From NCBI GenBank assembly GCA_019426215.1, contig CM033408.1, positions 32,563,409 to 32,627,408 of the forward strand: a stretch of 64,000 bases of DNA, in the 5' to 3' direction. The DNA is from Buddleja alternifolia (Eukaryota; Streptophyta; Magnoliopsida; Lamiales; Scrophulariaceae). The translations under genes were made by a program, and so were the position numbers. The notes under the pieces were generated by a model that saw nothing but the letters and a program-made list of their open reading frames with translations, had not been told where the DNA came from and made no database searches. How positions within the stretch are numbered: position 1 is the first letter of the stretch; each line of letters starts with the position of its first letter. Of this stretch, positions 23,889-53,343 are shown piece after piece.

Positions 23889-25722
23889 AGATTGAATCGA
23901 TGCCCGAGAGTGGATTGGAGAACAAATAAGGCATTCATACGTAAACTTCCTTGAGCCAACTCTGTAAAGTCAAGCTAGTGACTTTAAAAGAGCGCTTCTT
24001 GGGAGACAATCCAAGTTCGTAAGTTTTTCTTTCATCTTTTGTTTTTGTGTGTTTCTTTCATCTTTTGTTTTTGTGTGCTTAGTTTTTAGGTTTCCTTTCT
24101 GTTCTGGTGTTTTCTTTTAACATGCAATTTTGGCATGTGTTCCTTTATGCTTGATGCTTTGATTTGTTTTGAGTATGTTGAGCATGATTAGTATCCGGTC
24201 CCCTTCACTTTGGTTTGAGATGTTTGATTTTGATGATTTGAGCTGGAAAAACAACTTGTGGATGAAGGATTGTTTTTCAACATCCTTAGTTGTGAGTCTA
24301 CTTTTATACCCTTATTTCATGTGAGACAACATTGGGGACAATGTTGAGTTTAAGTTTGGGGGTGTATGAATGTTTAGATACTTTGTGCTTTTAATACATT
24401 CATATGATTGATCACAATGTGTTTGCTATATTTCCTATGCTATTCATATCATGTGTTCCTAGTTTAGCTCAAGTTTGGGGAAATTTTTATGCTATCATGT
24501 TTAGATGCTTTTATGTTGAGAAAATCGAGCATGAAAAAATTTTTAGCCTGCCAATTAATGCATTGAGATTGATTAACTTGAGACAATGGCATGATTTCTT
24601 GATTTATTTAGAATTTAATGGACTGTACATATCTTTGCTTTGCTCGTGGGACCCTAGATTAGAGTAGATTTTCCTTAGATGATTCACAAATGCACAATAA
24701 GTCGAGGGTAGAGGAGTTGGGTAGAGGAGTTAAGTTGGATAATCATTCTGAAACACTTAAGGAATTTTTCCCAGAAATATTGACTTAGATTCTTCTTAAG
24801 GTCATGAGTTGAGTATTTGCTTCATATGCTTAATGAATAATGAATGAGGTTGAATTTCGGTGTGACTTAAAGATTCAGGCTAATATATACTGGAGGTGAA
24901 AAGTTACATGCCTATAAACTGTACTATTATGCTAATTTGAGCTTTGTTCAAGCCAATTAAAGTTAAAAGTGAATGAAAGGTCTAGTTTTATTTTGTGGCC
25001 TTTGGCACTCGAGTGATTAAATCTGTAAGGAGTGTCTGGACACTTAATGCCCTAAAACTATCTAGTTTGGGAATCATTGGTCTAAAACTCGATACATGGG
25101 TGTCATAGAAAGCCTAAGGGAATAGAACATTGCACATGACCTAACCTTAATGAATTTAAATGGGAGTTTTATGAGAGTTTAAAGTCTAATTTGATTAAGT
25201 AATGACATTTAAGTAGCTATGGAGTTTCTTATGAGGCTTGTGCTTTAGGATTGGTCGAAGGTTAATAGATCTGGGATAGAGTCCGAAATTTGGTAAAGAT
25301 GCCACTTGACTATAATGCTTTAGACTTGTTTTCACTACATCCTTTGGAGATCTTTTCCAGTCTAGGTGTAATATCAGCAAGTATTTGATATGTATATATA
25401 ATTTTGAGCTTTACAGGTTGATTTTGTGTCATTGTTTTCTTGTTAATCATGTTAATTTGTATTGATTGGTTGTGGATGAAATTTTTAGATTTTGTGGGTA
25501 TATCGTCTGCAAACCCTCACGAGACTATACTCGTCCTTTTTGGGTAACAAAAAGGTTTAAAGGCTTATTGCACATGCTAAGTGCAATCGTTTACTCCACG
25601 AAAGTGAGTTTATCTTTTTGTTTTTGGTTTTTTGTGTTTGTCTCTCTTTGGTTGTTATTTCTTCATCTCATGTCTATGCTCTTCATTGCTCGAGGACGAT
25701 CAATGGGTAAGTTTGGGGGTGT
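23889..25722 (+). other. 3' untranslated region with conserved hairpin blocks
   Basis: Apart from small chance frames this 1.8 kb is non-coding. Five short hairpins can be drawn at 23998-24015, 25519-25534, 25535-25555, 25567-25587 and 25686-25703. Each has a positional counterpart in the gypsy element at 50585-54570, although the flanking sequence and LTRs differ. The last hairpin sits immediately before the polypurine tract. Confidence 0.6.
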
Positions 25723-27309
25723 TGATAGGTGTGAGATTTACATATTTTTTAGCCTCATACTCATGTGTTTTATATTGGTTTATGCATGATTTATGCCACA
25801 TATGCGTTTAATTTATGTGCTTATTGAGTAAAGGTGAGAAATCATTGCAATTGAGAAAAATTGGACGGAAATGCAGAATTTCAGAGTATTTGGAGACGGA
25901 ATTTGATAAATATTTCTTCTACAAAGTTGTAGAGATCTGTCTTAGCTTTACGTGACAACTTCAATCACTCAAATCGAAGGTCTATGGAGAAAGTTATGAA
26001 GGAACAAGATTACTGCATAGAAGGTAAAATGTTGCTGCTCCTAACGTTTGAACGTGAGATTTTGGATGTTCGAACGTTGCGTTTGATGGAAAAAATAGCA
26101 GATTTTTGGAAATTTCCAAATCTAGTTCAAGTTGGAGTCTTTTCTTTCCACCTTTATATATATTAGATCAGTTCTCTAGGCAGTGGTGGATCTAGGATTG
26201 AAAGTCAGTGGGGGCACTGGCGATAGAACGAGAAATTTTACTGAGGGGGTGAAGGCGAAAGATTTGAGGGGGGTGCGGGGGGCTTGTCCCCCGCGGTACG
26301 GTACGGTATATTTATGAGGAGAAATATAATAAAGAACTAGGTTCAATTACAACTTTTGACATAGTTTATACTCTTATATCTCTTTCGTTATAGCCAGGAT
26401 TTTGAGTTTCAAGGGGAACGAACTCAAAATAAAGGAAGAAAACATGATATTTTTCGATCTTTAAAAGGGGCGAAATTCAAATATAAAAAATTTTATAAGG
26501 TAAAAAAATGATTTTTCAAAATTTAGGGGGGGAGTGAGATGGAAATTGGAATTGAAGGGGGGCATTATGTAATTTATAAATTAAAATTTAAAAAAATGCA
26601 CATATAAAAAATAAAAATAAAATTTGAGGGAGGGCACTGCCCCCCCGGGGCCTTAATAGATTTGCCCCTGTCTCTAGGGTAAAAGACACGAAATACACAT
26701 AGAATAGAGCCCTAATGGGGTTTGGATATAGTTTTTACATATTCATGAAGGTTTTCAAAAACTCTTGAAGGTGAAGAAATCAAGAAGCATGGATGAGATG
26801 AAGATCGAAGTTCAACCATCAAAAATACGAGGGAGTTTCTTAGATTTAGATTTGTTTTTGTCTATGAATATGAATCTTAATTTAAGTTTCTATCTTTTAT
26901 CTTTTATATGAATTAGATTCTTCGAACTAAGGACATGTTGAGGCAAAATTATGATAATTGAGCTATAAATTGTATGTTTCATATTAATTCTAATGTTGCT
27001 TTCTGTCTTGGTCTTGTTTGACTACTTCATATGTTTAGCTACCATATGCACGATTTATTGCTTAAATTATTCGTTCGAGAGAAGGTAATTAAGGTGCAAA
27101 AAGGATCATCACATCATCCAGAAAAAATAGGGAATTGCCCCTAGAGATAGGTAGAGATTCCAGGGTGCTGTTAGCCGGATTTATCCGAGAAAATTCTAGA
27201 AGTCTAAAATACAAGTCTCTGTGGGATCGACAGTCCGGACTTATTGTCCACTTTATTACTACACTACCAGTCCACTTGCTGTGCAAACACGTGAGGATTT
27301 CTCATGTCA
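25723..27309 (+). repeat. 3' LTR of the non-autonomous gypsy-like element
   Basis: 1587 bp including an inserted hAT MITE with duplicated site (498 bp). Compared with the 5' LTR it lacks about 370 bp near 27195; the two sides of the missing block share the short homology AGAA, typical of illegitimate recombination. Confidence 0.9.
26181..26670. mobile_element. hAT-type MITE inside the 3' LTR
   Basis: 490 bp, starting CAGTGGTGGATCTA and ending TAGATTTGCCCCTG (imperfect inverted ends), flanked by the 8-bp duplication TCTCTAGG (26173-26180, 26671-26678). The 5' LTR has the empty site, so it inserted after the host element. Its outer parts are strikingly G-rich on the plus strand. No coding frame. 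Confidence 0.88.
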
Positions 27310-27314
27310 TCATG

Positions 27315-27614
27315 TCGCCAAAGAGTTAATGCTATAGCTTAAGCTTAGCAAGCAGAAACAGATCATGATTCATGGGTTAATGAAAATTATGTTGCCCAAT
27401 TTCTGATATTATCAAGATCATAGAAAATTCTGATAAGACATGCTCTTACAATTACGACTTGTGTCGAATGATAAACCATAAACATTCAGAATGCATATTG
27501 ATCTATGTTAATGCATGGCACAGACAACGGAAACATAATTAGCAATCTAAAATTTACTATCACATTAATTCGCGGCGTTAAATGGTAGGAATAGTTATAT
27601 TCAGTCACATTATG
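27315..27614. other. Short spacer between two retrotransposons
   Basis: These 300 bp are the original DNA between the gypsy-like element and the SIRE element. No gene or repeat recognised. Confidence 0.5.
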
Positions 27615-27619
27615 CACAC

Positions 27620-29160
27620 TGTTAGGAATTTCATGTTAGAAGTTTTGATGATGACAATTAGGATTTTATGTTAGACCCCAAAATATGTAAGTTTGATTTT
27701 ATTTAGAAATCATGTATAAGCTTTGAAGCGTTAGAATTGTAATAGGCTTTATATGCTTTGCTCTGTTTTATTCTAGATTGTTAGGCTAAGTATACTTAGG
27801 TTGAGCGTCTGATAAATTCTGAGTGAGTTTATCAGTAGTTTAGTTTGAAGACTCAAGTGCCTGAAGTCTGAATGAAGATAAAGATTCCAAGCGTCCAAAC
27901 GATAAGCTGCATCAAGTGTTTATTAGGACAAAAGTTATTTAAGGATGAATGAGCGTCTATCAATGACTGATTTCACCTGAATTTATTTCTAAATCCAGAA
28001 GGAGTTTAATGCAAATATTCTCAGTGCATTAAGTGCTAATGGGCATTTAATTCAAATGCATTAAATGCTGATAAGAGCATTAAATGTGATAAGCTCTTTC
28101 AGACGTACGGAGAAGCCACCCATTGGATAATCAATTTTCACAGATTGCAGCACCAACTTTTGTGCAGCAGATTTTCAGGAAAAGGGACAAAAGCTGTTCA
28201 CTCGCGGAAGTGAGAGACACGCGCCTGTGTATGTGTCAAACGGACACTTTTTCTAAGAATGCCTATAAATAGGACTTCAACAACAAGCCAAAAACTCCGA
28301 TCAATTCCAAGCCAAATTGTTGTTGCATTGAAGTATCATTCCTTAAACTCTCAGAAAAGCCAGAATATTTAAGCAAACATTTTCTTTGCTTTTCTTCAAA
28401 TCCTGAGACAGTCAACCAATATCTCAAACACTCTTTTAGGAGAAACCTATATTACTATTGAGATATTCACAGTTGTTTGAACTTTATCAAAATCAAACAA
28501 ACTATTCAGAAAAACCCCATCCAAGCCTCGCAATCTGTGTGAAGTCGAAGTTGGATACTTGCATTATTTCTAAGTGAAAGAAGCAAGAGGATAGAAGTGC
28601 CTTGGAGCAGAAATCTGTGTGATCAAGGAGCTCAAGTCATCAACATCCATTTCTTCCTAATTTGTAGAAAATTCTGTGTGATTCTTTAAGAATCATCTTA
28701 GTGGATTGCCTCCGAGTGTTCAAGGAGAAGAAGGACGTAGTTGGGATTACACCACCCAACAAACCTTACAAACATTATGTTATTTACTTTACAGTCAATT
28801 TTCTTATTATCATATCATTGAATAAATTGATTAAGTAAAACACAATCAAAAGCTAAGCAACTAAGAAACACCTTGTGACGCTAAAGCTTTCAAAAGAGAA
28901 GACTCTAAAATCATTCCGCTATGCTAACACTGAACAAAGAAGTGAACGCTTAAATCTATTTGGTTATAGTATTCAGATTTTGAAGTCTAGCTAAGTTAAC
29001 TTTCTAAAAACAGTCTTCAAGTAAACGCTTAGTCAAGCGTCTACATTTCAAGCGTCCAAAACCATTTTAATGCGAATAATTTTTGAAGTCGAAAAAGACT
29101 TCAGGGTCTATTCAACCCCCCCTCTTTCTAGACCCTTTCGTATGCCACTTGGGACCAACA
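27620..29160 (+). repeat. 5' LTR of SIRE copy A
   Basis: 1541 bp. It differs from the 3' LTR by scattered substitutions and small indels, such as an extra TATATGCT-like insertion near 27750 and a different C run near 29117. Confidence 0.92.
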
Positions 29161-29162
29161 AG

Positions 29163-29174
29163 TGGTATCAGAGC
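29163..29174 (+). other. Primer-binding site (initiator tRNA-Met)
   Basis: TGGTATCAGAGC follows the 5' LTR end by two bases, the standard Copia arrangement. Confidence 0.93.
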
Positions 29175-29261
29175 GGTTAAAATTGAAATTTTTAAAATTT
29201 CCAAGCATAACAGCTTGTTTAGATCCTTGTTTTTCAAAATCTAGTGGCTTTTAAATTTTTC

Positions 29262-34177: not shown

Positions 34178-35249
34178 TCATTATTGGTACTAAAATATGA
34201 TTTTGGCTAATTCCAGCTTGTTTCTTGCTTGTTTGGTCGTAGAGGTGTGAAACATCTTGGCCTAAACTTATTTTATACGTCCTTTTTCCACCCTTTCTTC
34301 GATTGTATCCACTTAAGGACTGAAATCACTTAATGCACGAATTAAACACACAAGTGACAAAATCAAGCGATAAATGAACCTAAAACATAAACGCAAAGGG
34401 GCTTAATAACACGTAAAAATGACTCCTATCAATTATGCATCGTATTTTATTAGGAATATAATTTAAGGGGAATCCACCTTATTTATGTCCAAAATATCTT
34501 TGAAAAGTTGTTACAAGTTAACAAATTTAGGAGGAACCTTAAAATTGTACTTGAACCTAATTGTAAGCGTCAATGATCAAAAACTTTCATATGCATGATC
34601 ATCAACGCTCAGTATTATATGTGCATAATATGATTGGACGCTCAAACATAAAATATTTTGATCTCAAGGGCCAACATAAATCTTACTATTGGTATGTGTT
34701 AAGCGTTGAACTTATTCCCTTCAACACTTAATATAAAATTGTTTGTAAATTCATGCATAAATTTTACACGCTTCTTAAAGTAGTGGATAGACTCAAAAGT
34801 CTATTTTGTACTCTATCTACACTTTTCTATTACATCAAACTAGCGGGTAATCAAAAATTTTCAAAATGACGGTTCAAAAATAGCACGTGTTTGTGTACGT
34901 GTCAGTGTACCATCAGGCGTGTGTGTTACACTCTGAATATCCCAAACGTTTTTAAAACTTTAACTCGGATGTCAAATCTTTATATATGGGAGTTACCAAA
35001 TGTAACTTTCCTCTCTTGCTTAAAATTCACATCCGCAGTTAAAATTTTCATGGCTGAGATTAAATAACTTTACACGTGTCTAAATCCTAAAGAGACGAGA
35101 GAACACAAGTTTCAAAAATTCCTTTACTGTGTCATTTAAAACAAATTTTTTGCAAAAAAATTATTCACTATTACTCAAAGCTATCTGCAAAATTACTGTC
35201 TCTCTCTTTTCTTCCAAAAGAAAATCTCAGTTCATCTTTTTCAGTAAAA
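34178..35249 (+). other. Non-coding spacer between pol and the envelope-like region
   Basis: About 1.07 kb without an open frame. It probably holds the promoter or splice acceptor used to express the downstream frame. The left breakpoint of the segmental duplication (34704) falls inside it. Confidence 0.55.
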
Positions 35250-38200
35250 ATGGCACCAAAGAAGTCTACTGCTACTTCTGCCGAGCCTACCATCAAGGTC
35301 ACTAAAGGCCTTGTTGTCGACTGGAAATTTCTGTACGAACAGACTCAGGTTGATCTTACGGAGATCATAGACTCTGTCTCTGAGTCTGGACTAAAAACCT
35401 TCCTCACTAAATACTGCTATATATTTCCTAACGAAGTTGAATTCTTTTGGAAAAATGCCAAACTCTCAGAGGACAAGAAGTCTATCTCTTGTCTCTTCTC
35501 TCTGTCCAAAAAGGAATCTAAGGAATTTGTTCTTACTGCCGACACCATCGCCCAGAACTTCAAACTCCCGAACCAAGGTGCATCTTTGAACTCTGTTACT
35601 GCAGAACAAATAGAAGAAGCCTGGACAAAGATCAACGCTTATGACAACATCCTTTACAAGCCTCATTTCGGGAAGAAGGATATAGTCGCCCGATACAGAC
35701 TATTGGCTGATTTCTGCAGTAAGTTCATTGAATGCAGAGTGGGTACTTTTGACAAGGTAAACCCATTGCAGTTCCAAATGATGACTGCTATACTCCTGGA
35801 TATTAAGATCAATTGGAGTGAATACATTTTCGAAAGATTCAGAGACTGCCTAAACGCTTCAAACAAACCGTATGGTATAATTCTCAGTGATCTACTTTTT
35901 AGAGTTGAATGTGTTAACTCTGCTAGGATTACTCTAACCAAGGCAAAATTCTATGGAAAGAGAATCATCAGCAATTTCTTTCACCCACCCAGAGTTGGAG
36001 GTGCTGCAAGGCCTTTGTCTGAGCGTCAAGTAGTACGCGAAGCGTCAGATGAAGAAACTGAGCGTCCAGCTCCAGAAGAAGCCGTGGAGCATCCGGCTGC
36101 TACAAAGAAGAGGGCTCCCAGAAAGCCCAAGCCTCAAGCTATTCCGTCTCCTCACAAGGATGATGAGGAAACAGACGAAGACGAGGAGGACAAGATTCCT
36201 CTAGTTAGGCAGAGGAAATTGGAAGGCATTATTAAACAAATTGATTTTGAGGAACCAATTGCCGCTTCTTCCGCTCCAACGCTGAATCTCATTGAAAAAG
36301 TCAACGTCAAAAAGATTTTCAAGCGTTCCAGGACAAGTAAGCGTCAAGATGCTCCTGTTCCGGAAAAGCCTGAGATGGTTAAACCAAGTGCTTAAGTTGC
36401 TGTTCAGACAAGCTCTCAGGGTAAGTTTATTTCTTCCCACATCATTTCTATTCCTACTCTGTAGAAGATCCTGCTCTTATAGAGGATAATTCTTGTGCTA
36501 CAGCTTTAGTTCCAGCTGCTGCTGAAGCATCAATAGACGTCCATCTGGATGTTGAGATGACTGATGTTGTGGATATTGCCAAAGACATTGCCGCCGATGC
36601 TGCTGAAATTGAAACCGAAGAACCTCCTCCCAAAGAGGTTCAAACATCAACTATTGTCCCAGTTATAACAGAGGCACGCTCAGAAGGTCAGAACGTTGCT
36701 GAAGATGTTACTATTCCCCAGTACTTCTTCAAGCTGGACCCACTGAAAATGATTGATCAGTCAATCAACTACATGCCTCCAGCGCTCAAAGAAGATTTCA
36801 TCACAGCAGGATATAATAAAGAAAGATACATAGTTGCTGAGGATGAAATAGCCTCGCTGATTGAGTTTGATCGGTCCATTCGCGACACTTTGTTCGACTC
36901 ACAATTTACATCAGCCGAGAAGGCATATTATCTGGCTGTTCAGCTTGGGAAAACTCCCAGTCAGATTCCTACTTCTATTGCTCTCCAAGAAAAAAGGAAA
37001 GGAGGTAGGACTCCACTATGTGATGTGGATCTAGCTTATTATCGAGAATTTGGACACAGCAAGCCCACTGGCTTTGCTCTGAAGTATTTTAACATCAGAG
37101 CGTATGATCCTTTTCGCCCAACCTTTCTCAACCCATCAGAGGCAGTGTTAAATAGAGAAAGGTACACTCACTTTTCCCATGTCGCAAACAGTAAAGAAAA
37201 TAAGCGTTTAGTTAATCCCCTTCATCTCTGGAAGAACAAAAGTGTTCATGCTGGTGAGCGTCTAGCATCCTTATCTGATATGATCCAAGCTGAGGCTGAT
37301 GCGTACTTTGACAGTGTTTGGAACGCCAGCTATCAAACAGACAAACACCATTTTGAATCCATCAGGGATATTCACCACGAGGGCATTTGAGCGCTAATAA
37401 ATGCAGGTGCTGACTATTGCATGAGTGAAGTAAATTGGTGTGAATCGTATGTTGGCCATCAGTTTTCCTTTCAAGAATTAGTCAAAGCTCCTCATCTATT
37501 TGGCATAGGCATGCATGACAAGAGACGTCAATTTGCCAAGTATTGCCTTGAGAAGCGTCAAGAGAGAGTTGGGCTTTTGACAAGTTACCCGAAGTTCATC
37601 AACAGATAGAACTATTTCTACGACAAGCGCTGCACAGATTTTCCATCACTCCTCTTCAGTTCAACGCTCAAGCGTCCACCAGTGGTAGTTCATCAACTTT
37701 TTGCTTGAACTTCTCTCCAAGTCACTGTGATGACAACATCCGATTGATGATGAAGATCATGGCTCTCATTCCTCACTTCGACAAGATCTTCACTGAAAAT
37801 CTACGGAAGCCCAATGGCTCGAGGATTCGCAACTTCCAAGGTTATCCACTTCTACCTTCTATCAGACAGGAAGTAAGCGATCATTATGCCTACGTTCTGT
37901 CTTTGCTTGAACGCAATCAAGGCATAGCACGAGCAGTGTATCCGTATTTGGAAGACTATTACAGCATGTACGTACCAAAAGCTCACAAATTCGAGCGTCT
38001 TCCTACGGATCGGATTATTGGATTTTCTTTGCATTACAGCCCAGATACTTTATTTTTCATCCTGAAGCCGCGATCAAAGATCTTTCCAAACCACGTATTG
38101 GACATCATGGGTCCAATGTATGTCCGAACACGAGACAGTCATCTTCGCACCTTTATTTAAGGGACTTGCATCTCTCTCTCAAGACTGACTGAACTTCTGA

Positions 38201-39380
38201 AACCTGCTTCAGATTCCTATGCAAATCTTGCTAATTGGAACTTTCAATTCGATAATTTCTGCCAAACCGAGTCAGCGCTTGAGGAAGCGCCTATAAAGTT
38301 GATTGAAGAATCTGCACCAGCGTCCGTCTCAGCAGTTGCAAGCATTCCAGGGTCTGCTGAAGAACTTGTTCAAGAGTCTCCACCAGAGGATACTCCTGAC
38401 GCTTCTGAACACGTTGCTGATATGGCTGAGGATCCTCAATTCGATGTACGCGGTACAGTTTTTGATCCTGCATACCAATCTCGCCTTGACTCACTCAAGC
38501 ATACATCCAGATTTAAGCGACCAGCTCCTCAAGCGGTTCCTTAGGATGTGGGTCAAGATTTTGGACCTTTGTTGAAATCAGTCTTAGAGAAGGTGAGCAA
38601 TCACGCTACTCAGAATGAAGAATCCCTCCATTGGATCAAGACTAATTTGGCAAAGATTGAATCTCAAACTATGAGCGCCCAGAGTGCTCATATGCGTTGT
38701 TTTGCTCAGGCGGCAGTTGGTGAGTGTCGCAGAGAATTTCAAGAAATGAATGATGCTACTCGGGCCAACCAACTAGCTACGAAAGAACACTTTGAGAAGC
38801 GCCTAGACAACTTAGAGACTTCACTGACTGATGCTACCAGCGCCAAGCTACTCGCACTGCAGGAAAGTTTTGACAAGCGTCTGGATGATCTTATAGCGTC
38901 AATGTCTCAGATTGCTAATCAGGTCAGCCTACTCATAGAGCATTTTCTAAAGGTTGATGATGGCAATAAGGGGGAAGGGGAGAAGAGGAAAGCATCCAGT
39001 TCAAGAGCTTCCAGCCCTCCGCTCAAGCATCAAACTTTCTTTCAACTATTGCCAGTACCTTCAAGGGCATTGTCTGAACAGTTTGATGTTCCATTCTCTA
39101 GAACGTCTATTCCAGAGCCTTCTGACCCGAAGATCATTGCTAAAGAGCAAAATAAGTCAGACTTCATTAGAGCGTTCAGAGTATGCCTAAGGATGATTGG
39201 CATCAACCCAGTTGAATAGGATAAGCAATTTGTTGCTTATAAAAAGAGACAACAAGAAGAAAAGAAGACAATAATAAATAAAGAACATTCCGCCATGATT
39301 AGGCTTGAAGAAAATATTTCAGAAGCAATCAAGGCTGAGGTAAACAGAAGACTCAACGCTCAAGAAGAAGATGATGATTA
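35250..39380 (+). pseudogene. SIRE envelope-like region, copy A (interrupted)
   Basis: First frame 35250-36395 (381 residues, MAPKKSTATSAEP) has a globular part (about residues 20-250: LKTFLTKYCYIFPNEVEFFW, LTADTIAQNFKLPNQGAS, KPYGIILSDLLF). It resembles the plant transposon protein fold found in envelope-like genes of SIRE and some gypsy elements (from memory). A charged Pro/Ala-rich tail follows. After an in-frame TAA (36393) come frames 36557-37390, 37421-37609, 37705-38160 and 38548-39219. The last has a coiled coil (about 38600-38950) and a basic KRKASSSRASS patch. The TGA at 37388 and the later breaks are shared with copy B, so they predate the duplication. No signal peptide or convincing transmembrane helix is visible. 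Function unknown. Confidence 0.6.
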
Positions 39381-39613
39381 AGAGCTGCTGTTTACTTTTC
39401 ATTATCCATATTCTTGTCTCTTTTGTATTATTTTTATGTAGTTGTAAAATGCTTGAACTATCAGTAATATATATATATATATATAAAATGTATTTTCAGT
39501 TGAAACATCTCGTTGAAGCGTAATTAACTTTAACTAACTTTTACTAACCAAAGCTAACTTTCTTTTTAGCTGTCTAACTCTTGAACTATAAGAGAGTAAG
39601 TATTGCCATCATC

Positions 39614-39627
39614 AAAAAGGGGAAAAT
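39614..39627 (+). other. Polypurine tract of SIRE copy A
   Basis: AAAAAGGGGAAAAT sits directly before the 3' LTR, the position used to prime plus-strand DNA. The same tract precedes the copy B LTR at 59498-59511. Confidence 0.85.
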
Positions 39628-41155
39628 TGTTAGGAATTTCATGTTAGAAGTTTTGATGATGACAATTAAGATTTTATGCTAGACCCCAAAATATGTAAGT
39701 TTGATTTTATTTAGAAATCATGTATAAGCTTTGAAGCGTTAGAATTGTAATAGGCTTTGCTTTGTTTTATTCTAGATTGTTAGGCTAAGTATTCTTAGGC
39801 TGAGCGTCTGATAAATTCTGAGCGAGTTTATCAGTAGTTAAGTTCGAAGACTCAAGCGCTTGAAGTCTGAATGAAGATAAAAATTCCAAGCGTCCAAACT
39901 ATAAGCTGTATCAAGAGTTTATTAGGACAGAAGTTATTCAAGGATGAATGAGCGTCTATCAATGACTAATTTCACTTGAATTTATTTCTAAGTCCAGAAG
40001 GAGTTTAATGCAAATATTCTCAATGCATTAAGTGTCAACGGACATTTAATTCAAATGCATTAAATGCTGATAAGACCATTAAATATGATAAGCTCTTTCA
40101 AACGTACGGAGAAGCCACCCATTGGACTGTCAACTTTCACAGACTGCAGCACCAACTTTTGTGCAGTAGATTTTCAGGAAAAAGGACAAAAGTTGTTCAC
40201 TCGCGGAAATGAGAGACACGCGCCTGTGCATGTGTCAAACGGACACTTTTTTCAAGAATGCCTAAAAATAGGACTTCAACAACAAGCCAAAAACTCCGAT
40301 CAATTCCAAGCCAAATTGTTGTTGCATTGAAGTATCATTCCTTAAACTCTCAAAAAAGCCAGAATATTCAAGAAAAAATTCTCTTTGCTTTTCTTCAAAT
40401 TCTGAGACAGTCAACCAATTTCTCAAACACTCTTTTAGGAGAAACCTATATTACTATTGAGATATTCACAGTTGTTTGAACTTTATCAAAATCAAACAAA
40501 CCATTTAGAAAAACCCCATCCAAGCCTCGCAATCTGTGTGAAGTCGAAGTTGGATACTTGCATTATTTCTGAGTGAAAGAAGCAAGATGATAGAAGTGCC
40601 TTGGAGCAGAAATCTGTGTGATCAAGGAGCTCAAGTCATCAACATCCATCTCTCCCTAATTTGTAGAAGATTCTGTGTGATTCTTCGAGAATCATTTTAG
40701 TGGATTATCTCCGAGTTCAAGGAGAAGAAACATGTAGTTGGGATTACACCACCCAACGAACCTACATTGTGTTATTTACTTTACAGTCAATTTTCTTATT
40801 ATCATATCATTGCATAAATTGATTAAGTAAAACACAATCAAAAGCTAAGCAACTAAGAAACACCTTGTGATGCTGAAGCTTTCAAAAGAGAAGACTCTAA
40901 AATCATTCCGCTGTGCTAACACTGATCAAAGAAGTGAATGTTTAAACCTATTTGGTTATGATATTCAAATCTTGAAATCTAAGTTAACTTTCTAAAAACA
41001 GTCTTCAAGTAAACGCTTAGTTAAGCATCTACATTTCAAGCGTCCAAAACCATTTTAATATGAATAATTTTGAAGTCGAAAAAGACTTCAGGGTCTATTC
41101 AACCTCTCCCCCCCCCCCCCTTCTAGACCCTTTCGTATGCCACTTGGGACCAACA
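39628..41155 (+). repeat. 3' LTR of SIRE copy A
   Basis: 1528 bp, closely similar to 27620-29160 and almost identical (a handful of substitutions by eye) to the LTR at 59512-61043. Confidence 0.92.
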
Positions 41156-41160
41156 CACAC

Positions 41161-41636
41161 CCTTATTCGGTTGGTCATATCTAGATAACTCCAAAAATAA
41201 GAGATGAAGTTGTAAAGCTACTTTAAGTGATTAGAGGGAGGGTGCAATTGTAATAACGGATAAAATATGTTAATTTTTCGAATCTCCGAATTTTTTTTGT
41301 AACTCGTAAACAATACATGCGTTGCAGGTGAATCATATGATTTCGTTAAAATAATTCATATACATATATATTGTTTAACTTGATAAAATCTAAAACTTAA
41401 ACAATAACTCATCAACTAATGAATCATCATCTAATAAACTATAATTATTTGAAAATTTAATAATTAATTGGTATGAAAGGTTGAAAAAAACCTAATTTAA
41501 TTGGATATTGAAATTTAAATAATAGTGTAACTATACATAAATTCTTATGTAAATTGATGTTTCACTTACATGTTGTCTTGTTAATTTTGATGGATTAAGC
41601 GTTTCACTTTTTCTTTTCTCTCTTTGGGTTATGTGT
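41161..41636. other. Flank of the SIRE element, nothing recognised
   Basis: AT-rich DNA beyond the target duplication. It recurs at 61049-61522, which shows that the later duplication carried SIRE-external DNA. Confidence 0.6.
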
Positions 41637-41644
41637 GTATTTAA

Positions 41645-42192
41645 TGGGGGTGTACACAGTCGGGTTCGGGCGGTTTTATGCAAAGAGATCAACCCACCCG
41701 ACATGTGTGGTTTGACAAAATATCAAATCGAAACTTCATAATTATCTTTTCAAATTGAGTAGTTCGGGTTGCTCGGGTTGAAGATATTTAGCAATTGGGT
41801 TGGCTAGTTTTCGAATTATAGTAATTATTTTTTCTACTTTAAATCAAATAAAAAATAAAAACAAGTGTTCAAACAAGGTATTCAATTTTTTTGCCCAAAT
41901 AAAAAGTAAAGTGTTACATGAATATGAATAAAACCACTCTTGTTAGAAAGTATATTATTTTCAAAACTTGGTATTAATCTTTAACTATATATAGATATAT
42001 ATGTGCAACATATATAACTAGCGGTCGGGTTGCGGGTTGCAATTATTAAATCCACCACCCGACTCGAAAGTGGAGGGCTGCAACATTTTCAAACCGCCAC
42101 TATTATTTAAAAGAATTTAACCATCGATTTTCGGGCGGGTCAGCTTGGTTTGAGCGGTTCGGGCGGGTTGTGCGGGTCTATATACACCCCTA
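41645..42192. mobile_element. hAT-type MITE, copy A
   Basis: 548 bp with inverted ends TGGGGGTGTACACAG.. and ..CTATATACACCCCTA, flanked by the 8-bp duplication GTATTTAA (41637-41644, 42193-42200). The outer 100-150 bp are rich in CGGGTTCGGGCGGG on the plus strand, a style common in plant hAT MITEs. No frame. Confidence 0.85.
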
Positions 42193-42200
42193 GTATTTAA

Positions 42201-44704
42201 AATAGTCTTTTTATTATGGTTCAAAAACTGAATACTTGTACATAGTATCTTTTGTTTCTTAATTTTGATTATTTTTGTTATTTCTCCATTTCTAAAGTCA
42301 TCGTAGCATGTTTTTTCTCAAAATCATTCGACGTGTCTCCATTTTGAAAATCAATTTTATTCTCCACAAGTCACAATAGGTTTGCATAGATGATATTTAT
42401 ATATTGAATGTGTCCTTTTCATTTATAAGATTATATTTTATTGATAAAAATAAAGAAGAAGTAAAAAATACGTATGTTGCACATAAAAAGTTAATGCATA
42501 AATAATAGAAAAAATAATTAAAACATAGTGAGGAATATTTTTTTCTTTTCTTAACTTGATAATTGTTGTTATCGTATTTTCATTTTCAATTGGTAGTTCT
42601 ATTTCTCGGAACAAAGCGTTAGTCATATTTTAATAATATTTTTCTATTAATATTGATGATTTAGTTTTAAATATATTGGGTATAGTGTTAACCATGTTCA
42701 TTTATGTTTCCAAAATTTTTTAAAAAAATATATTTGGTAATATTTGCAATGTTTGTTTATGTTTTCAAAAATAATTTTCTTTTTATGAATTATAACTTTT
42801 TGAAAATTTTATCCACAACACATTTTCAACTAAAACTACATTGTTTTCAAATTCAATTTTATAATTCCAATTTTTCCTATATAACTACCTATAAATCAAT
42901 AAATTCATCACCTCACATTGTCTTTCATAAATAATTATATACTTCAATTACTCTTTTATATTTCGTTCTTACTTAACTATTTCTTTAATTAATCATATAA
43001 TCATTATCAAAATAACTAACTTAATCATTCTACACATCATATATTAACACATCACATTTGATTTGACACATGCTACTAATTCCAAGCGAAAAACATAAAT
43101 AAACACAACCAAAATCATATTATTTTCACCCGAATAGTTGAACACCTGTAAAGCACGTTTTCCAAAGAATCTTCTAAAATTCAACCGAAAAACATAAACA
43201 AACATCGCTGTATAAGAGTTTTGCAATTATTGAATATACATTTATAATATTTGAAGGTAATAAAATGAAAAACATCATTCTACTCAAATTCTTGAATAAG
43301 CTATTTAAAGGGACTAAATTAAACAATAATAATACACTTTAGTAGAGGGGATTCGTAAAGTTTATGATTTCCTAAAATATAAATGATATTATAAATTTAT
43401 AAATTTAATATGAAATAAATACATAAATCATATTATATGTCATATTGTTCGTCAAATGTCCTACTCAAACTAATTTAAAGCAAATATTTTAATCAATCTT
43501 TATATTACTTATCACAATTTGTAGCTTTTAAGAACATGAGAAAAAATTATGATATTCAATTAAAAATTCATTATTTCTACACAAATTCATTGCTATTCAT
43601 TGCTTGAATATAGAAAGAATGAGCACCTACTAAACCTCTATATGCAATATTTTTTTACTGTTCTTTAGTTCTATTCAAGAATAGTATGCAGTTAAATTTG
43701 AAGAAAAATTAAGAGATGCGGTTTAATGTTTTTTACCTAAAAATCGTATACATGTTAATATCTTGAAAAACTTAGTTCATATTTTTTGTGTTTTAATTTC
43801 AATCAAGGTACATGCAACATTTGAAAGAAAACAAATCACAAGAGTAATAATTTTGATCATTAAAATTACAAGGACAATATGCATGTAAGATCTGGAGAAA
43901 CTGCATAAGATTTATAGTGTTAATCTTTCTTTCGTGAGTTTTTTTTTTTTTTGTCTTGAGACAAAAGGGAAGAAGATTTGAGGTTTTGAATGAAAACAAT
44001 TTTGAATAAGTTTTTCTATTTTAATAAATTATAAAATCAGTAGTCACGTCTCTCTGAATGTCTTCTACATTGCTTAAAGTTCCTTCTTCTTTAGAAATAG
44101 TTTTTCCAAAAGAAAAACATAAACAAAAAGAAAATTAGGGAACTTAGAGAAATAGAAAATAAAATTAAAATAATGTTCAGTGGTAATTAAGACAATTGCA
44201 TGATAAGAAAAGGGGGTAAATGTTATTTTACATACTTGAGGGGGTAATTGGTACAATATATCAACTCATTAACTCAGTATAGTATTAGTAATATATATTT
44301 TATCATTTTAAGATTTTATTTTTTTGGCTAAACATTTTATCATTTCACGAATAGAAGATATTAGGGTCATTCTTGGTGGCACCAGGAGTATAGCTCCAGG
44401 CCACTTTCCTCTAATTGCCCAATGGTCCAGCCTTTTTTAAAAATATTACAAATTGGTCCTCATAGTTTTTAACATTTTTATAAAGGTGACAAATATATAT
44501 AAAATAAACAGTGTTACCAAATTTTTATTATTTAACGAGTTAAGCATTCTATTTTGAAATTCTCATGTAAGAGGGTTGCTTCATAAATCCGGTTGCTTCA
44601 TTAACGAAGACTTATATTGGATCTGGAGTAAAGTACCTATCTTACCCTGTTGAAATTTAAAATATAGTCTTAACTTATTTAATAATTTAAACTTAAAAAC
44701 ACCA
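42201..44704. other. AT-rich DNA, no gene; possible old fold-back remnants
   Basis: No coding content. TGTTTATTTATGTTTTC-like phrases occur on the plus strand at about 42690-42760 and on the minus strand at about 43085-43205, which could be the arms of a decayed inverted-repeat element. The part up to 44110 recurs at 62087-64000. Confidence 0.4.
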
Positions 44705-45183: not shown

Positions 45184-45270
45184 ACAAGAAAAGAGGAGAG
45201 ATTCTCTAGCAACCAAGAAGTGTGGGTTGGAGAATGTCAAGGTGCGAGTTTACAATATGAGTAATGAGGT

Positions 45271-45280: not shown

Positions 45281-45746
45281 GCCTCGGACATGAAAGAAAT
45301 TACAACAAATTGAAGAGAGATTTGGCATCCGAACTACCATTATTACAAACAGTGTCTAAACAGTAAAAAGTACATAGGTGGCAATAGTAAACATTTAATA
45401 TGGTACAAAAGTTGCTGAGATTGTTGCTTTGAATTCAGTGCCTTGTTTGATAGCTGAATTATTGCTGCAAATTATTGTCCTTGCTGCTGATACATTTATG
45501 ACTTTTGTCTGGGAGATGCATTATTTTGCTGAAACTTTGAATGCTGTCTTCATGAGCTGTCTCTTAAATTTGTCTTGTAGCTGAATTATTGGTGCTGCTA
45601 ACCATTATTGCTGAACTGTTGAAGCTTTTGTCTTCTAGTATGTATCTCGACTGGTTCCTTCTAGATCTGGATTATATTCTGAATCAGGATTATACATATC
45701 AGGATTATATCTTGATGGGTATTCCACACTTGTCATTGCTCTTTTC

Positions 45747-47253: not shown

Positions 47254-47254
47254 G

Positions 47255-49250
47255 ATCTGTGACCCAAATTAAAGTTAATTGTCTGCTTAATAAATCTGCT
47301 ATACTATTGTTTGATCCTTTAATATGTTCAAAATCTACTTTATATCCATTACCTTCTATTGCATTTCTAAAATTTAACCATCTTTTATTATTTTGTTTTC
47401 TAGAATTTTCATTTTTTATGAATCTAACTACAGCTTCACAATCTGTTCTGATGGTAAAAGGTTTATTTAAATATAATCTAAAATGGTCTATTGCTTTAAC
47501 TATTCCTGCTATTTCATAATCTAGGCTAGTCCAATTACTTCCTGTTTTATTAAAATTACCACTAGAATACGCTGATATTTTTTCTTCACTTTTTGGAGAA
47601 AATTTATGAGGTTTACATTTTAATATTGCTCCTCATCCTTCTATAGAGCTATCTACTTCTATTATGACATAATCAGTACTTAAGGGTAATTCTAAAAGTT
47701 TTAAATCTTTAACAATTTCTTTAATTTTTCTGACTAAGTTAATATCTTCCTGATTAAAATGTCTTTGACCTGATTTTCCTGTTTTCTTATATAATGGTCT
47801 GACTAATTTACTAAGTTTAGGAATAAATTTTCTAGAGTAGTTTAATATTCCTAAAAACGCTTGTATTTGTTTTAAGTTTTCTAGCTTATCTGGGAAATCT
47901 AGAATTTTTTGAGCTATATGAGGTTGTAATTTAATTTGTCCGTTTCCTATTTCTAAACCTAAAAAGCTTATTTTTCTCTTAAAAAGTTCCATTTTCTTTT
48001 TAGATACTACTATTCCATTTTCTTCTATTAATTAAACACTTGTTTTAAATGATCCTGATGTTGCTTAAAAGTTTCAGAAGCTACTAAGATGTCATCTATA
48101 TACACTAAACAGAAATCTAAATGTTTAATATACTATCCATAAATCTTTGAAATATTGCTGGAGCATTTTTTAAACCAAAAGATAGAACATTCCACTCAAA
48201 ATGTCCTTCACTACAGCTAAAAGCTGTCCATTTTTTGTCTTCCTCTACCATTTTAATTTGATTATATCCGCTTTTTAAATCAAATTTTGAAAAAATCTTT
48301 TTATTTTGTATAAGATTAATTAACTCATCTTTATTAGGTATTCTATAAGCATCATCTTCTGTATTATCATTAAGCCTTTTATAATTATATACTATTCTAG
48401 GTTTCCTCTTTTTTATTTCTGCATTATTTCTTACTATAAAGGCTGCTGATCTATGAGGACTATCACTTCTTCTATAACACCGATTTCCAACATTTCTTTT
48501 ATTTGTATTTTGAATTCTTTTATATCTTCAGGAGTATATTCTATAGCTGCTGTTCTTATAACTAATCTGGGTTTAATATGTTTAGTTTAAAGTATATATT
48601 TACTTTGTTTTAGCTAAATCATCTCCTATAAATCCTAACATTTCTAATTTATGCAAAATTCTTCTCATTTTCTAGGTTTTAAAACTTCTAATCTCTTTCC
48701 TATATCTCGTATTTCTTCATCTAATAGAATATCTATAGTTTCAGGTTCTATATTATTTTGTTCTAATTCTTTGAAAAATCGAGTTCATTATTACCATGTC
48801 CACCACGCTTCGCAGTCAACTTTGATTGTTTAATGTATCTATAGTTGGAAAAGTATAATTATTTTGCTAATAGTATATAATTTTTTCCTATTAAGATACT
48901 ACCATTAATGCACAAATGAAGTTTAGCCCTAAAAGGAATTCATGGCTATTTATGTTATCTGGTGCTATAAGGACTTGTCCTAATGTATATTTGCTACTAT
49001 AATTCCTGAAAAATCTTTAAATTGTATTCCTCTGTTAATTAACTCTTTTGTTATTCTCATTAATCTATTTTCTGCAGTTCTACTAGTAACATTAGAACTT
49101 AATTGTGTTACAAATTCTTTTGGCACAAGACTAGCGCTAAGCATGCCTTTTTTGTACTTCCTGTATCTAAAAATGGCTTTAGTTTCATATATTCTTCTTG
49201 ATTACACATATTCGACAATCTAAAAGTATTAGACTACTAGTATAGGGTAC
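47255..49250 (-). pseudogene. Protease-RT-RNase H gene of the endogenous pararetrovirus
   Basis: In minus-strand order: protease motif FLDTGST (plus about 49150-49170); RT with [34 protein letters not shown] and the polymerase motif YIDDIL (plus about 48087-48105); the RT connection FLGLEIGNGQIKLQPHIAQK with FLGILNYSRKFI (47633-47992); and RNase H with EVDSSIEG, LDYEIAGIVKA, IRTDCEAVV and NSIADLLSR (47255-47640). Stops and frameshifts interrupt it at several points, for example near 48020 and 48135. The LQPHI and LNYSRKFI phrases are specific for plant pararetroviruses. Confidence 0.85.
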
Positions 49251-49639
49251 TTGTGTTGGGGTTCATACGCTGTTTTTGTAAATGAGTTTCTTCTAATAGT
49301 TGGTTAATTTCATCAAGTTCCTCTATAACTACACCTTTTCCTTTATTTTGATTACTACTTATGTTTTCATTATTTTTTAATTTTAATTCTATTAATTGTA
49401 TTCTTAAATCTAAATTCTCTATTTTATGGCTTAGAACTTCTATAGATTCTAGTTTTTACTAGGTTTAGGCGATACATCTGTTTCTATATTATATGCGTCT
49501 TTAGCACAAATAAAACAAATCTCGTCAAACATATATGCACTGATATCTTAAATGCATATCAGGATATAATCTACAAATACTACAGGCTACACTAATAGTT
49601 CCTTTTCCATTTATATATTATGTTCACATGAATTATTCA

Positions 49640-50250
49640 TAAGTATATTCTATTATATTTGGAATTTCTGGTCCTTCTTCACTTACTATACTAAATATGC
49701 TTTCATTATCACTTTCATTACCGTCTATACTTACTACATCTTCATCTAATTGTTCTGCTATGGCTGCTCTTTCCATATTAAATTGTCTTTTCGGACATCT
49801 GTTAGCTAAATGTTTAGGATCTCCACAAATATAACATGTGCATTTTCTTGTTGATGGCTTTTTAACATAATTAGGTGGTTTTCTTCTTTGCCTATATTGT
49901 CTAAAACTATATTTTGGTTTATTTGATTTTCTTAATATTTTGCGTTTTGACTTAATGTAATTCTTCTGTCCATATTGTTGTGGGGTGTATATAGCTTTTC
50001 TACAAAACTCATAAGATTGTTTTCTAATTTGTTCTCTAATAAATTCTTTTTTACACCATTCCTGAAGTTTAAAGAAAGTATATTGTACTCTAGGTCCTAT
50101 ACCTAATCCTGTAAGATTGCCATTAGTTTTTATCCATTCTTCATGTATTCTTTTTCCTAAATCTTGTGGTAATTTCGTAAAATATCTATTACATAATTTT
50201 TCATCAAATGCTTTATTAGCTTCTCCTATTAACCTTGTAAAATCCGACTA
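49640..50250 (-). pseudogene. Coat-protein C-terminal part of the endogenous pararetrovirus
   Basis: The minus-strand frame has GEANKAFDEKLCNRYF, KLPQDLGKRIHEEW and a basic stretch (KRRKPPNYVKK-like). The knuckle CTCYICGDPKHLANRC (CXCX2CX4HX4C, plus 49794-49842) is the diagnostic caulimovirid nucleocapsid motif. An acidic tail (IDGNESDNES) follows. Sequence to about 50580 still looks viral (APRSKNIWEHVYKTWE) but has stops and a T/A run near 50257. Confidence 0.8.
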
Positions 50251-50600
50251 AAGGTAAAATTTTTTTTTTTTAAAAAATAATTTATATCGTTATAGTCGTG
50301 GTTCTAGGTTTCTAAGGGCGTATATCTTGTATGAATGTATTTTCGCTTCCTGGACTATTCCTATTATTACGGTTCTAATTAAAAATAGTAAAATTATAAG
50401 GATTATTTCCTAAGGCTTATTTCATAATTTATTCGGATCCTTTTTTTTTACTTTGCCGTAGATATGCGGGGTCCTAGCAGGTTTCTAAAAAATTAAACAT
50501 CTCCATATTGCTTTTTTATTTATTTCCCAGGTCTTATACACATGTTCCCATATATTTTTAGATCTAGGAGCTTCTATTAATATCATATCTCGTTCTCTCT

Positions 50601-51040
50601 ATGAATCTTTGGATGTGGGGGAAAATTGAAAAGAACGGATGTGATTACCAATTAATTGATAGGTCTAATGTGTATCCTGATGGTGTTCTTGAAAATATAT
50701 TAGTTCAAGTAATCATTTGGTATTTCCTGCTGATTTTTATGTTATTGATATGGGTGAAGATAACTCTTGTGATTTTTGCTCCATTTTACTTGAAGACCAT
50801 TTCTTAAAACATCTAGAACTAACATTGATATTATAATGGGACAATTACTATGGAATCAAATGGTGAAATCATAGAATTAGTATTTATGATTCCATGAAAT
50901 ATCCTAATGATGATCATTCTATGTTTGTCAAAGATGATACTGACTTGTTGATGCAGCAAATTATTGAACTCAATGATGATGATCTACTAAAGGTACTTGG
51001 CACAATGATGGCTTTGAAACCTCCTACTTATGCAACTTGA
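50601..51040 (+). pseudogene. Gypsy aspartic-protease region remnant
   Basis: The three-frame reading gives QLIDRSNVYPDGVLENILVQV, then DFYVIDMGEDNSC and a LLEDHFLKTSRTNID-like phrase, then SMKYPNDDHSMF. This is the C-terminal half of the Athila-type protease region (LADRS.xYPxGVLExVLVQV...DFYVLDM). Frameshifts lie near 50735 and 50800. Confidence 0.75.
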
Positions 51041-51100
51041 GCCATAACCTCGTCTAGCCAAAGACGTTAAAGAAAGGCGCTACTTGGGAGGCAACCCAAG

Positions 51101-53343
51101 ATTTTACCTTTTCTAGTTCTTAAATTTATGTTTTTGTTGTTTTATTTTATTTTATTTCACCTTTTCTTTGAGGGGAAACACATCCAAGATCACACGGGGA
51201 CACTTTTTAAAATTAGAAAAATTTTCGGAAAAAAAAAAAAAATTTAATTGACAGATACAACTTCAAATTAGGCGTGCCCACGCTTTATCCAAGTTGCCAT
51301 CTGTTTAACTGTGCACCTTGTTAATAATTCATGACTCAAAATTAGGCGTGCCACGCCCAACTATAAGTCACACTCTGAATTTAAACACTTCAACCTTTGG
51401 GAAAATTTGAAAAAAAAAAAATTAATTAAAAAATTCGAATTTCCTTTTTCTCTCAGCAATTACTTACTTTTCAGCTTTTTCCCCTATCTTTTTCTTTCTT
51501 TGGACTTAATTGTCTCTCCCCAATTTTTCTTCTACAGAAGCAAAATAAAGCTTCAACTCCATAACCATTCCATCCATAATATCCACCATTGAAGCTTCAA
51601 GCTCCATCTCCACCAAACCACCGCCGGTCACCACCATGAGGAAGCGACCACCGCCGGATCTCGACCGCCGCTGCTACACGGCCGAAAAATCTCGCCGCCG
51701 AATCGCAGCCACAAGCGAGCGCCGACGCCGATCATCGTCTCAACCGCCACCTCCTCCCACAAACGCGATGCCGTCGCGTCACCACCAACAAACACACGCG
51801 CCGACGCTGCTCAAAAACAGATCTGGTAAACACGTCTTCATCACCGCAGACTTCCAATAACCCGACGCCGCCGCGAATCCGCCATCCAACCGCGCCGCCG
51901 CTACACAGACGAAAACGGTGACAAAATCAACCTCAAAACCCGATCTAGCCGCCGGCTGCTGACAAAGCCGACCACCCTCATCCTTCCTTAAATCCAGGAT
52001 ACGAAAATCTGTGTATGTAAATCAAGCAACTGCTATGCAACTGAAAGTGAATTGTGAATAGCCGTTCTTTTGAACACACAAATTGTGAATAGCCTCCGGT
52101 TCAAACTCATCCAGCCACAGTACACATCATTCAAACTCCGGATCCATATTCCATATTCCACCGGATTGATATCGGGTTCACACATCTAAATTCAGGGGGT
52201 CCCGTCCTTTACCTCCATTTTTTTTATTCCTCTTATGCTTTATATTTTTATACATTGAGATACATTGAGGACAATGCATGAAATAAGTGTGGGGGAGGGG
52301 GTTAAATCCTTTGTCGTGATGCGTGTATAATTCTCTTAGTGTGCAACGAGTTAAGTTAGTGTAAATTTTTTCGAAATATCAATTCTTTTGATTTGAGGAA
52401 ATTTGATGAAATTCATGAGAGAAGTCAAGATGCTTATACCATTACAATTGTTGAAGTACATGTTCTTTGAGAAATTTACGGAAGTTTGTAATTGGAATTG
52501 TGTATGTGATATTTGACTCGCAAAGTTCGTTGATATTTTCTTAGGTATTAATTTTGGTGAAATTAAATTGATGATGAGTTGAAAATATGGGTATTACGAC
52601 CCTATGAAGTAATTTGTGCTAAAATGTGTATGATATAACCTCTTGTAGCGCCTGGGGCTAACTACACTGAAAGGGATTAAGCCTGAGGAGTTTTCAAGCT
52701 TGGAACCTAAGGCCAAACTGGTCTGGGATCTATCGGCCCAAACCTGCTACTGTGGTAGTATCCTGATGGACTATAAGAGGGTATCACATGATAAATGATA
52801 AAACTTGTGAGTAACCGGTGCATTCATGACCAATGTTTGTATTCGCGTCAAAAGACAAGTAATTGCTTAAGTAAATGTAAGTGTGATATGTGGCTAAATT
52901 GGTTATAAAATGCTTGAGGAGATAGAAATGGATAATGCGAGTTGAGGTTGCTGTGATACGTGATTTTGCAATCATGGATTTTTGGAATTTTTGAAGAGTA
53001 TTGTATGGATACGAAAGTATAGTTGAGGCATGATGGATATCTTTAAAGAATTTTTGTTAAAATTTTTGAAGATAAGGGTTGATGTTTGGAAAATAAGTTT
53101 CTTTGACTTGCTTGTTTGTACATGAGAGATCGATTTTGTGGGTACATCATCTGCAACCCTCACGAGACACAACTCGTCCACTAGGGTAACCTAGGGGTTT
53201 AAAGGTTGTTGCATACGCTAAATGCCTCGTGATATACTACGAAAGTGGTTAGTTTTAGTTGTTTTTGTTATGTTTCCCTTTTCTAGATTTTGAGTCTTTT
53301 GTCTTTGCACGAGGACGTGCAAGAGTTAAAGTGTGGGGGAATT
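51101..53343 (+). other. 3' region of the truncated gypsy element, structured but non-coding
   Basis: It contains a GC-rich, CCG-repeat stretch (51600-51990) whose Arg/Pro-rich frame (51636-51860) looks like low-complexity noise. Four hairpin blocks at 53162-53177, 53178-53197, 53211-53225 and 53305-53322 lie just before the polypurine tract and are matched by the element at 21267-27309. Confidence 0.55.

What the first reader, a model, noticed from the sequence alone, without database searches (positions are those of the whole stretch)
23998..53322. Five matched hairpins with compensatory changes in the 3' UTRs of two gypsy elements with different LTRs
The element at 21267-27309 and the one at 50585-54570 have unrelated LTRs but share, in order, five small stem-loops. 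H0: CTTGGG..(T/C)CCAAG (23998-24015; 51083-51100). H1: ACGAG..CTCGT (25519-25534; 53162-53177). H2 directly abutting H1: CCTTTTTG-GGTAA-CAAAAAGG against CCACTAGG-GTAA-CCTAGGGG (25535-25555; 53178-53197), where at least three stem pairs change on both sides. H3: GCAC-ATGCTAA-GTGC against GCAT-ACGCTAA-ATGC (25570-25584; 53211-53225), one C-G to T-A pair change. H4: TTGCTCG-AGGA-CGATCAA against TTGCACG-AGGA-CGTGCAA (25686-25703; 53305-53322), one T-A to A-T change, ending just before the polypurine tract. Paired changes with kept loops suggest selected RNA structure, perhaps for packaging, dimerisation, plus-strand priming or 3' processing. A non-autonomous element would need such cis signals to use a partner's proteins. 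The AGGA-loop phrase seems familiar from plant Athila/Tat elements; I know of no structural description.
Basis: partly seen in the sequence, partly recalled or inferred. Interest (0 to 1): 0.75.

Follow-up and report, generated by a model that had tools for sequence, protein, structure and literature searches.

The report
Paired RNA hairpins in plant retrotransposons
Thousands of copies of a plant jumping-gene group carry the same small set of RNA hairpins in their non-coding 3' region, with matching changes on both sides of several stems, so the RNA shape itself seems to be kept by selection, perhaps to help copy the element's RNA back into DNA.

Summary
All five hairpins are present as stated, and several stems covary across families of the same plant genome. 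In 70 distinct copies of the H1-H3b block, the two strongest-coupled of 4566 column pairs are an H3 pair and an H2 pair. H4 covaries at two of four variable pairs. H1 is unsupported; some families keep mismatches in H2 and H4. A further stem, H3b, covaries; another, H00 after the last stop codon, alternates A-T and C-G but was not tested against a null. At one H3 pair, U.G intermediates number 79 and C.A 31, which favours plus-strand RNA. H4 ends 18-21 nt before the LTR in 39 of 45 copies. I think the hairpin-PPT unit helps set the plus-strand primer and the other stems mark the genomic RNA; function is inferred, and all data come from one genome. My searches found no description of these hairpins.

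The parts
21267..22712 (+). element A, 5' LTR
   Evidence: direct repeats D1-D7
25723..27309 (+). element A, 3' LTR
   Evidence: direct repeats
23007..23888 (+). only + strand ORF of at least 120 aa in element A (293 aa, no Pfam match)
23965..23986 (+). H00 hairpin, element A (TAAAGTC/GACTTTA)
   Evidence: sequence, fold, variants
51051..51066 (+). H00 hairpin, element B (CGTC/GACG)
   Evidence: sequence, fold
23998..24015 (+). H0 hairpin, element A
51083..51100 (+). H0 hairpin, element B
24328..24345 (+).
24352..24362 (+). internal PPT-like tract, element A
52263..52276 (+). I hairpin (CATTG-AGGA-CAATG) before the internal PPT, element B
52285..52295 (+). internal PPT-like tract, element B
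25519..25534 (+). H1, element A (not supported by covariation)
53162..53177 (+). H1, element B (not supported by covariation)
25535..25555 (+). H2, element A
53178..53197 (+). H2, element B (one A.G mismatch)
25567..25587 (+). H3, element A, extended to 7 pairs
53211..53225 (+). H3, element B
25593..25609 (+). H3b, element A (ACTC-CACGAAAGT-GAGT)
53236..53249 (+). H3b region, element B (degenerate, ACT/GGT)
   Evidence: form ACC/GGT of its relatives
25686..25703 (+). H4, element A (one C.T mismatch)
53305..53322 (+). H4, element B
25709..25719 (+). 3' PPT core, element A; LTR starts 25723
53329..53339 (+). 3' PPT core, element B; LTR starts about 53344

Best explanation
The 3' non-coding region of these Ty3/gypsy-type elements (probably Athila-type) carries two RNA modules kept by selection on the plus-strand RNA. 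Module 1, just after the last stop codon: H00, H0, then the I hairpin and an internal PPT. Module 2, before the 3' LTR: H2, H3, H3b, then H4 and the 3' PPT. Shown: presence, covariation of H2, H3, H3b, H4 and I, fixed hairpin-PPT spacing, recurrence at two sites. Inferred: the RGGA-loop hairpin and the PPT work as one unit in plus-strand priming. My most likely mechanism is that reverse transcriptase, having copied the PPT, pauses at the foot of the hairpin; its RNase H site then lies about 18 nt behind, at the PPT/LTR junction, so that the primer end is cut at the right place. The remaining stems probably let element proteins or host factors recognise the genomic RNA, which would explain why elements without pol keep them.
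For: Covariation: 70 distinct rows; H3 and H2 pairs rank 1 and 2 of 4566; H2 also 4, 6, 17; H3b 16 and 31; simulated p 0.001-0.008 for these; H4 pairs 3 and 8: p 0.005, 0.015; I pairs 7 and 8: p 0.001, 0.005. Plus strand: U.G 79 against C.A 31 among 4712 H3 sites (binomial p 5e-6); reconstructed internal-node states 68 G.U against 3 A.C. Ruler: H4 foot to LTR 18-21 nt in 39 of 45. Three distinct insertions without the H1-H3 block (L064/L065, L083, L250) keep both hairpin-PPT units.
Against: H4 pair 4 is not significant (p 0.11) and is a C.T mismatch in 17 of 45; pair 9 p 0.08. On tree branches, changes from Watson-Crick to G.U are 20 and to A.C 12, p 0.22. The RGGA loop and the innermost pair of H4 and I were fixed by the search pattern, so their conservation is not tested. 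The enzyme spacing of about 17-18 nt is recalled for retroviral enzymes, from no call; the enzyme of these elements was not studied. Behind the enzyme the template is in a hybrid, so only a pause in front of the hairpin is possible. The internal PPT need not be used. Everything comes from one genome.
Confidence: 0.42

Rival explanations
1. The whole set is a bipartite recognition signal of the genomic RNA (nuclear export or packaging), with hairpin loops read by Gag or a host factor; the nearness to the PPTs is a by-product of where the modules sit.
For: Elements with different coding ends (integrase end L114, protease-like end L116, unplaced L110) keep the same stems after their stop codon; loop letters recur between modules (GCTAA in H00 and H3; GGCAA and GGTAA in H0 and H2; RGGA in I and H4). 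[quoted passage not shown]
Against: Does not explain the fixed hairpin-to-PPT spacing at two sites, nor why some elements lack H1-H3 and keep I and H4.
Confidence: 0.33
2. Module 1 acts in translation (termination, reinitiation or mRNA stability) because it lies at a fixed distance after the last stop codon.
For: The last long ORF stops 33-43 nt before GCGCT in 27 of the 29 distinct contexts printed (ORFs over 100 aa only, out of 59 H0 sites).
Against: The same spacing follows if the UTR module simply begins there and coding parts are swapped upstream; no ORF of 120 aa follows on the + strand in A or B; it says nothing about module 2.
Confidence: 0.1
3. DNA-level palindromes (protein-binding sites), not RNA structures.
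For: Symmetrical stems alone cannot tell RNA from DNA; the branch counts of G.U against A.C changes are not significant.
Against: U.G over C.A excess at H3 (79 to 31; mutational context could contribute); asymmetric loops kept in H2 and H3; orientation fixed to the PPT.
Confidence: 0.05
4. Shared ancestry only: a few young families with inherited arm types, no selection on pairing.
For: One genome; some arm types are carried by many related copies.
Against: Simulated nulls on trees; 4602 of 4712 H3 sites are Watson-Crick at the variable pair; only the module regions still match clearly between A and B.
Confidence: 0.08

Closest known systems
[quoted passage not shown]
   Same: A stem-loop tied to the PPT, proposed there to help RNase H form the right primer; extra PPT copies upstream.
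   Different: There one arm is upstream of the PPT and the other inside the LTR, so the PPT lies in the structure, and upstream PPTs lack it. Here the whole hairpin is upstream of the PPT and the internal PPT has a hairpin of its own. Different superfamily.
Extra PPT in Athila4 and Calypso (Wright and Voytas 2002; paper not held; known here only as cited in PMC2829016)
   Same: An additional PPT between pol and the 3' LTR in env-bearing Athila-type elements; the internal PPT as such is thus known.
   Different: The citing passage mentions no hairpin at it; the original was not read.
Ty3 genomic RNA structure by SHAPE-MaP, PMC11381356 (12 of 17 found passages seen)
   Same: Ty3/gypsy element with structured RNA; its PPT lies in a base-paired region.
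   Different: The passages seen describe no hairpin unit before the PPT and no second PPT.
HIV-1 central PPT; retroviral export elements such as those of MPMV and RSV (recalled, no call)
   Same: A second plus-strand start inside the genome; RNA elements between the last gene and the LTR.
   Different: No sequence kinship was looked for; comparison rests on recall.

Membership tests
Athila-type Ty3/gypsy elements | PBS for tRNA-Asp about 5 nt after the LTR | tested here: inconclusive
   A has TGGTGGCATTGTCGGGGA 6 nt after the LTR; its likeness to the tRNA-Asp complement (14 of 18) rests on a recalled tRNA sequence; that Calypso and Diaspora have a tRNA-Asp PBS, 5 bp beyond the LTR, is in PMC1142308 (passages)
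Athila-type Ty3/gypsy elements | extra PPT between the last gene and the 3' LTR | tested here: met
   A 24352, B 52285
Athila-type Ty3/gypsy elements | env-like ORF | tested here: not met
   no ORF of 120 aa between I and H4 in A or B; both lack pol, so the feature may be lost; Diaspora of this lineage also lacks it (PMC1142308, passages)
Athila-type Ty3/gypsy elements | RT phylogeny | not tested
   no RT was found in A or B; a relative with the same module 1 (L114) ends in an integrase (PF00665, PF17921)
Sirevirus-type PPT inverted repeat | arms on both sides of the PPT/LTR junction | tested here: not met
   both H4 arms lie upstream of the PPT
any Rfam family | score at or above the family's gathering score | tested here: not met
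   four matches up to E 5 in 21000-54600, all far below their gathering scores

The most novel reading that the evidence does not exclude
A hairpin-PPT unit that works as a molecular ruler: the RGGA hairpin stalls reverse transcriptase so that RNase H, about 18 nt behind, cuts at the PPT/LTR junction; the same unit sits at an internal site and gives a second plus-strand start. The unit and two accompanying covarying RNA modules would be a general feature of Athila-type elements.
Probability: 0.25. Interest if true: 0.8.

Novelty: new variant of a known kind. Interest (0 to 1): 0.62.

Why it matters
How plant Ty3/gypsy elements mark their RNA for copying, and how pol-less copies borrow the machinery, is little known. 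A covarying RNA module present thousands of times in one genome gives defined pieces to probe, a way to find and group non-autonomous elements by their UTR instead of their LTR, and a concrete test of whether RNA structure sets the plus-strand primer end.

Tried and rejected
IMG/VR scans with the PPT-hairpin and H0 patterns gave 11 and 29 stretches; the contexts printed look like prokaryotic or phage DNA to me and were set aside as chance. A search for loci coding a relative of the L114 protein in IMG/VR found none. So no other plant could be examined. Text searches for motif letters in papers (18 papers, 40 of 100 papers listed) showed no retrotransposon paper that I could use; one grasspea primer is not informative. 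Paper searches for a description (with 20 of 101 listed, 19, 64, 73, 98) showed no title or abstract about these hairpins; most subscription papers are not held.

H1 as a conserved stem: rejected for lack of canonical variation (one pair reaches p 0.028, through non-canonical rows). RNAalifold on unforced MAFFT alignments of 42 blocks finds H3 and three pairs of H3b but not H1 or H2, and pairs TTTGTGGG with CTCACGAG instead; I judge that H2 is missed because the H1 loop and H2 differ in length by one base between families, but it is a result against a naive reading. The structure-anchored alignment fixes where the arms lie, not which letters they hold. The G.U/A.C count on tree branches was not significant. 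For H4 pair 3 only the total of the four A/T combinations was obtained (807); the two split counts did not complete.
Full report
What is there. All five hairpin pairs are in the sequence at the stated coordinates. Element A is an LTR element of 6043 bases (LTRs 21267-22712 and 25723-27309) whose only + strand ORF of at least 120 aa matches no Pfam family. Element B has a 3' LTR starting at about 53344, no recognised 5' LTR, and upstream a broken stretch that I read as the protease of such elements (LGASINIISRSLYESL; not searched). The two clearly significant matches between A and B are the two hairpin regions.

The genome. The window lies in a held genome of 853.6 Mb in 429 contigs, which I take to be a plant from its elements; no species name was given. 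Patterns occur thousands of times: loop plus PPT with outer stems free 3853 (reversed control 2), H1-H3 anchors with arms free 4066 (control 0), and H0, whose three inner pairs are fixed by the pattern, 5284 (control 0).

(a) An I hairpin, AACATTG-GGGA-CAATGTT in A and CATTG-AGGA-CAATG in B, before an internal PPT-like tract. The distance from the end of the loop to AAGT of the PPT is 11, 12 or 13 nt in 11, 29 and 5 of 45 distinct H4 copies, and 13 or 14 nt in 39 and 1 of 40 distinct I copies, where the pattern allowed about 7-23. The loop was fixed as RGGA by the pattern. (b) H00, a stem just after the last stop codon: the pair next to GTC/GAC is A-T in 18, C-G in 5, A-G in 3 and G-G in 1 of 27 distinct rows; no null test was made. 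(c) H3b, ACTC/GAGT against ACC/GGT around CGAAAG. (d) Loop letters recur: GCTAA in H00 and H3, GGCAA and GGTAA in H0 and H2, RGGA in I and H4, which suggests that the two regions are old copies of one module; that is inference.

Covariation of H1-H3b. Final run: 100 sequences (42 from loci, 57 distinct texts, and B) were placed in a structure-anchored alignment; 7 were dropped and 70 distinct rows left after collapsing truncated duplicates. A FastTree tree was built from the same rows and each helix pair was compared with 1000 simulations of its two columns on that tree. Of 4566 column pairs the best two by APC-corrected G are H3 59-67 (T-A 34, C-G 33, T.G 2, A.G 1; p 0.001, the floor) and H2 24-38 (T-A 41, C-G 28, C.A 1; p 0.001). 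H2 27-35, 26-36 and 28-34 rank 4, 6 and 17 (p 0.001, 0.003, 0.008); H3b 81-93, 80-94 and 82-92 rank 16, 31 and 99 (p 0.002, 0.007, 0.005). The remaining pairs of these stems have p above 0.09, except H2 23-39 (p 0.032) and H1 4-19 (p 0.028, through non-canonical rows). Twenty-four pairs were tested. Non-helix pairs also rank high (third is 26-35, within the H2 arms), as expected with related rows. Sliding the partner by 1-3 columns drops pairing from 0.90 to at most 0.62 for H2, 0.98 to at most 0.43 for H3, 0.89 to at most 0.53 for H3b, and also 0.96 to at most 0.53 for the unvarying H1, so this control alone proves little. Against: H2 keeps an A.G mismatch in 21 of 70 rows and runs of T.T mismatches in others, and RNAalifold on unforced alignments finds neither H1 nor H2. 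The first run gave the same picture but held duplicates.

Covariation of H4 and I. With trees made from flanks without the hairpin (45 and 40 distinct copies, 1000 simulations): H4 pair 3 (T-A 28, A-T 5, C-G 2, T.G 3, mismatches 7) p 0.005; pair 8 p 0.015; pair 4 p 0.11, with C.T in 17 of 45; pair 9 p 0.08. I pair 7 (A-T 29, T-A 10, T.G 1) p 0.001; pair 8 p 0.005; pair 6 p 0.08. Pair 1 is fixed by the search pattern. Tested only for pairing above chance instead of G, pair 3 of H4 gives p 0.18 and I pair 7 p 0.07. H0: 40 of 59 copies have the same arms; two (L110, L111) have a T-A to G-C double change, others single changes or mismatches; no null test.

Which strand. At the variable H3 pair the genome has 79 U.G and 31 C.A sites among 4712 with the fixed rest of the hairpin; the other 4602 are Watson-Crick (p 5e-6 for 79 against 31 with equal expectation). 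Mutational context could contribute. Over all H1-H3b pairs there are 75 G.U and 14 A.C cells and 68 against 3 reconstructed internal-node states; branch events are 20 against 12 (p 0.22) and 21 against 12 in the repeat. Together this favours structure in the plus-strand RNA, without proving it for each stem.

Where it sits. In one search the last ORF of over 100 aa stops 33-43 nt before GCGCT in 27 of the 29 distinct contexts printed; the exceptions are L123 (110) and A (103). These loci end in different proteins: an integrase (L114), a protease-like end (L116, Pfam matches below the curated cut-off), an unplaced ORF (L110). The foot of H4 lies 18, 19, 20 or 21 nt from the LTR in 5, 23, 6 and 5 of 45 distinct copies; one is 26 (a long G run) and in 5 the LTR start was not parsed. 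Other spacings vary more: among the 31 I-H4 pairs matched (its pattern misses the TTGCACG form of B), H0 to I is 96-327 nt and I to H4 1.0-1.4 kb, with two at 2.0-2.3 kb; in B itself H0 to I is 1.16 kb. Of the 5 pairs that calls free of the H1-H3 block, L046 has it in a variant form; the others are three insertions (L064/L065, L083, L250), and L049, L052, L054 and L087 keep H4 without the block.

How it may work. The hairpin and the PPT recur as a unit with fixed spacing at two places, one of them not next to an LTR. The simplest function of an internal PPT is plus-strand initiation, so I place H4 and I there. A pause of reverse transcriptase at the hairpin foot would put the RNase H site, about 17-18 nt behind in retroviral enzymes (recalled), at the PPT/LTR junction. 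This is inference. For the Ty1/copia Sireviruses a stem-loop around the PPT has been proposed to help primer formation (PMC2829016, passages), and that paper cites the extra PPT of Athila4 and Calypso (section 17). H00, H0, H2, H3 and H3b are more likely a recognition signal of the RNA.

Limits. No function was tested. No report of these hairpins was seen in the listings, and no Rfam family reaches its gathering score, but most subscription papers are not held.

Noticed in passing
window 34704-44111 and 54578-64000: Two copies of at least 9.4 kb, 99.24% identical, start-to-start 19874; the second runs off the window, so a tandem duplication of about 19.9 kb or two copies of one element are both possible. 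ORFs of 381 and 712 aa inside; the 381-aa one matches no Pfam family.
   Followed up: no
window 27620-29160, 39628-41155, 59512-61043: A 1.5-kb stretch in three places; the first is about 92-93% identical to each of the others; LTR-like in size.
   Followed up: no
window 3779-4825: MULE transposase ORF (PF10551, PF00872, SWIM).
   Followed up: partly
window 51600-52000: C+G-rich looking stretch between H0 and the I hairpin of element B, where the copies matched have only 96-327 nt between the two; may be captured foreign DNA.
   Followed up: no
window 23009-23274: Tandem duplication of about 137 bases inside the ORF of element A (84.7% identical).
   Followed up: no
window 25490-25518 and 53134-53161: Strongly conserved TTTTGTGGGTA...TGCAAACCC block before H1, which can pair with the H1 5' arm region; a possible switch with H1.
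   Followed up: partly
P0027, P0050: Plant-type pol fragments filed under Salmonella enterica and a gammaproteobacterial MAG on contigs under 4 kb; probably contamination.
   Followed up: no
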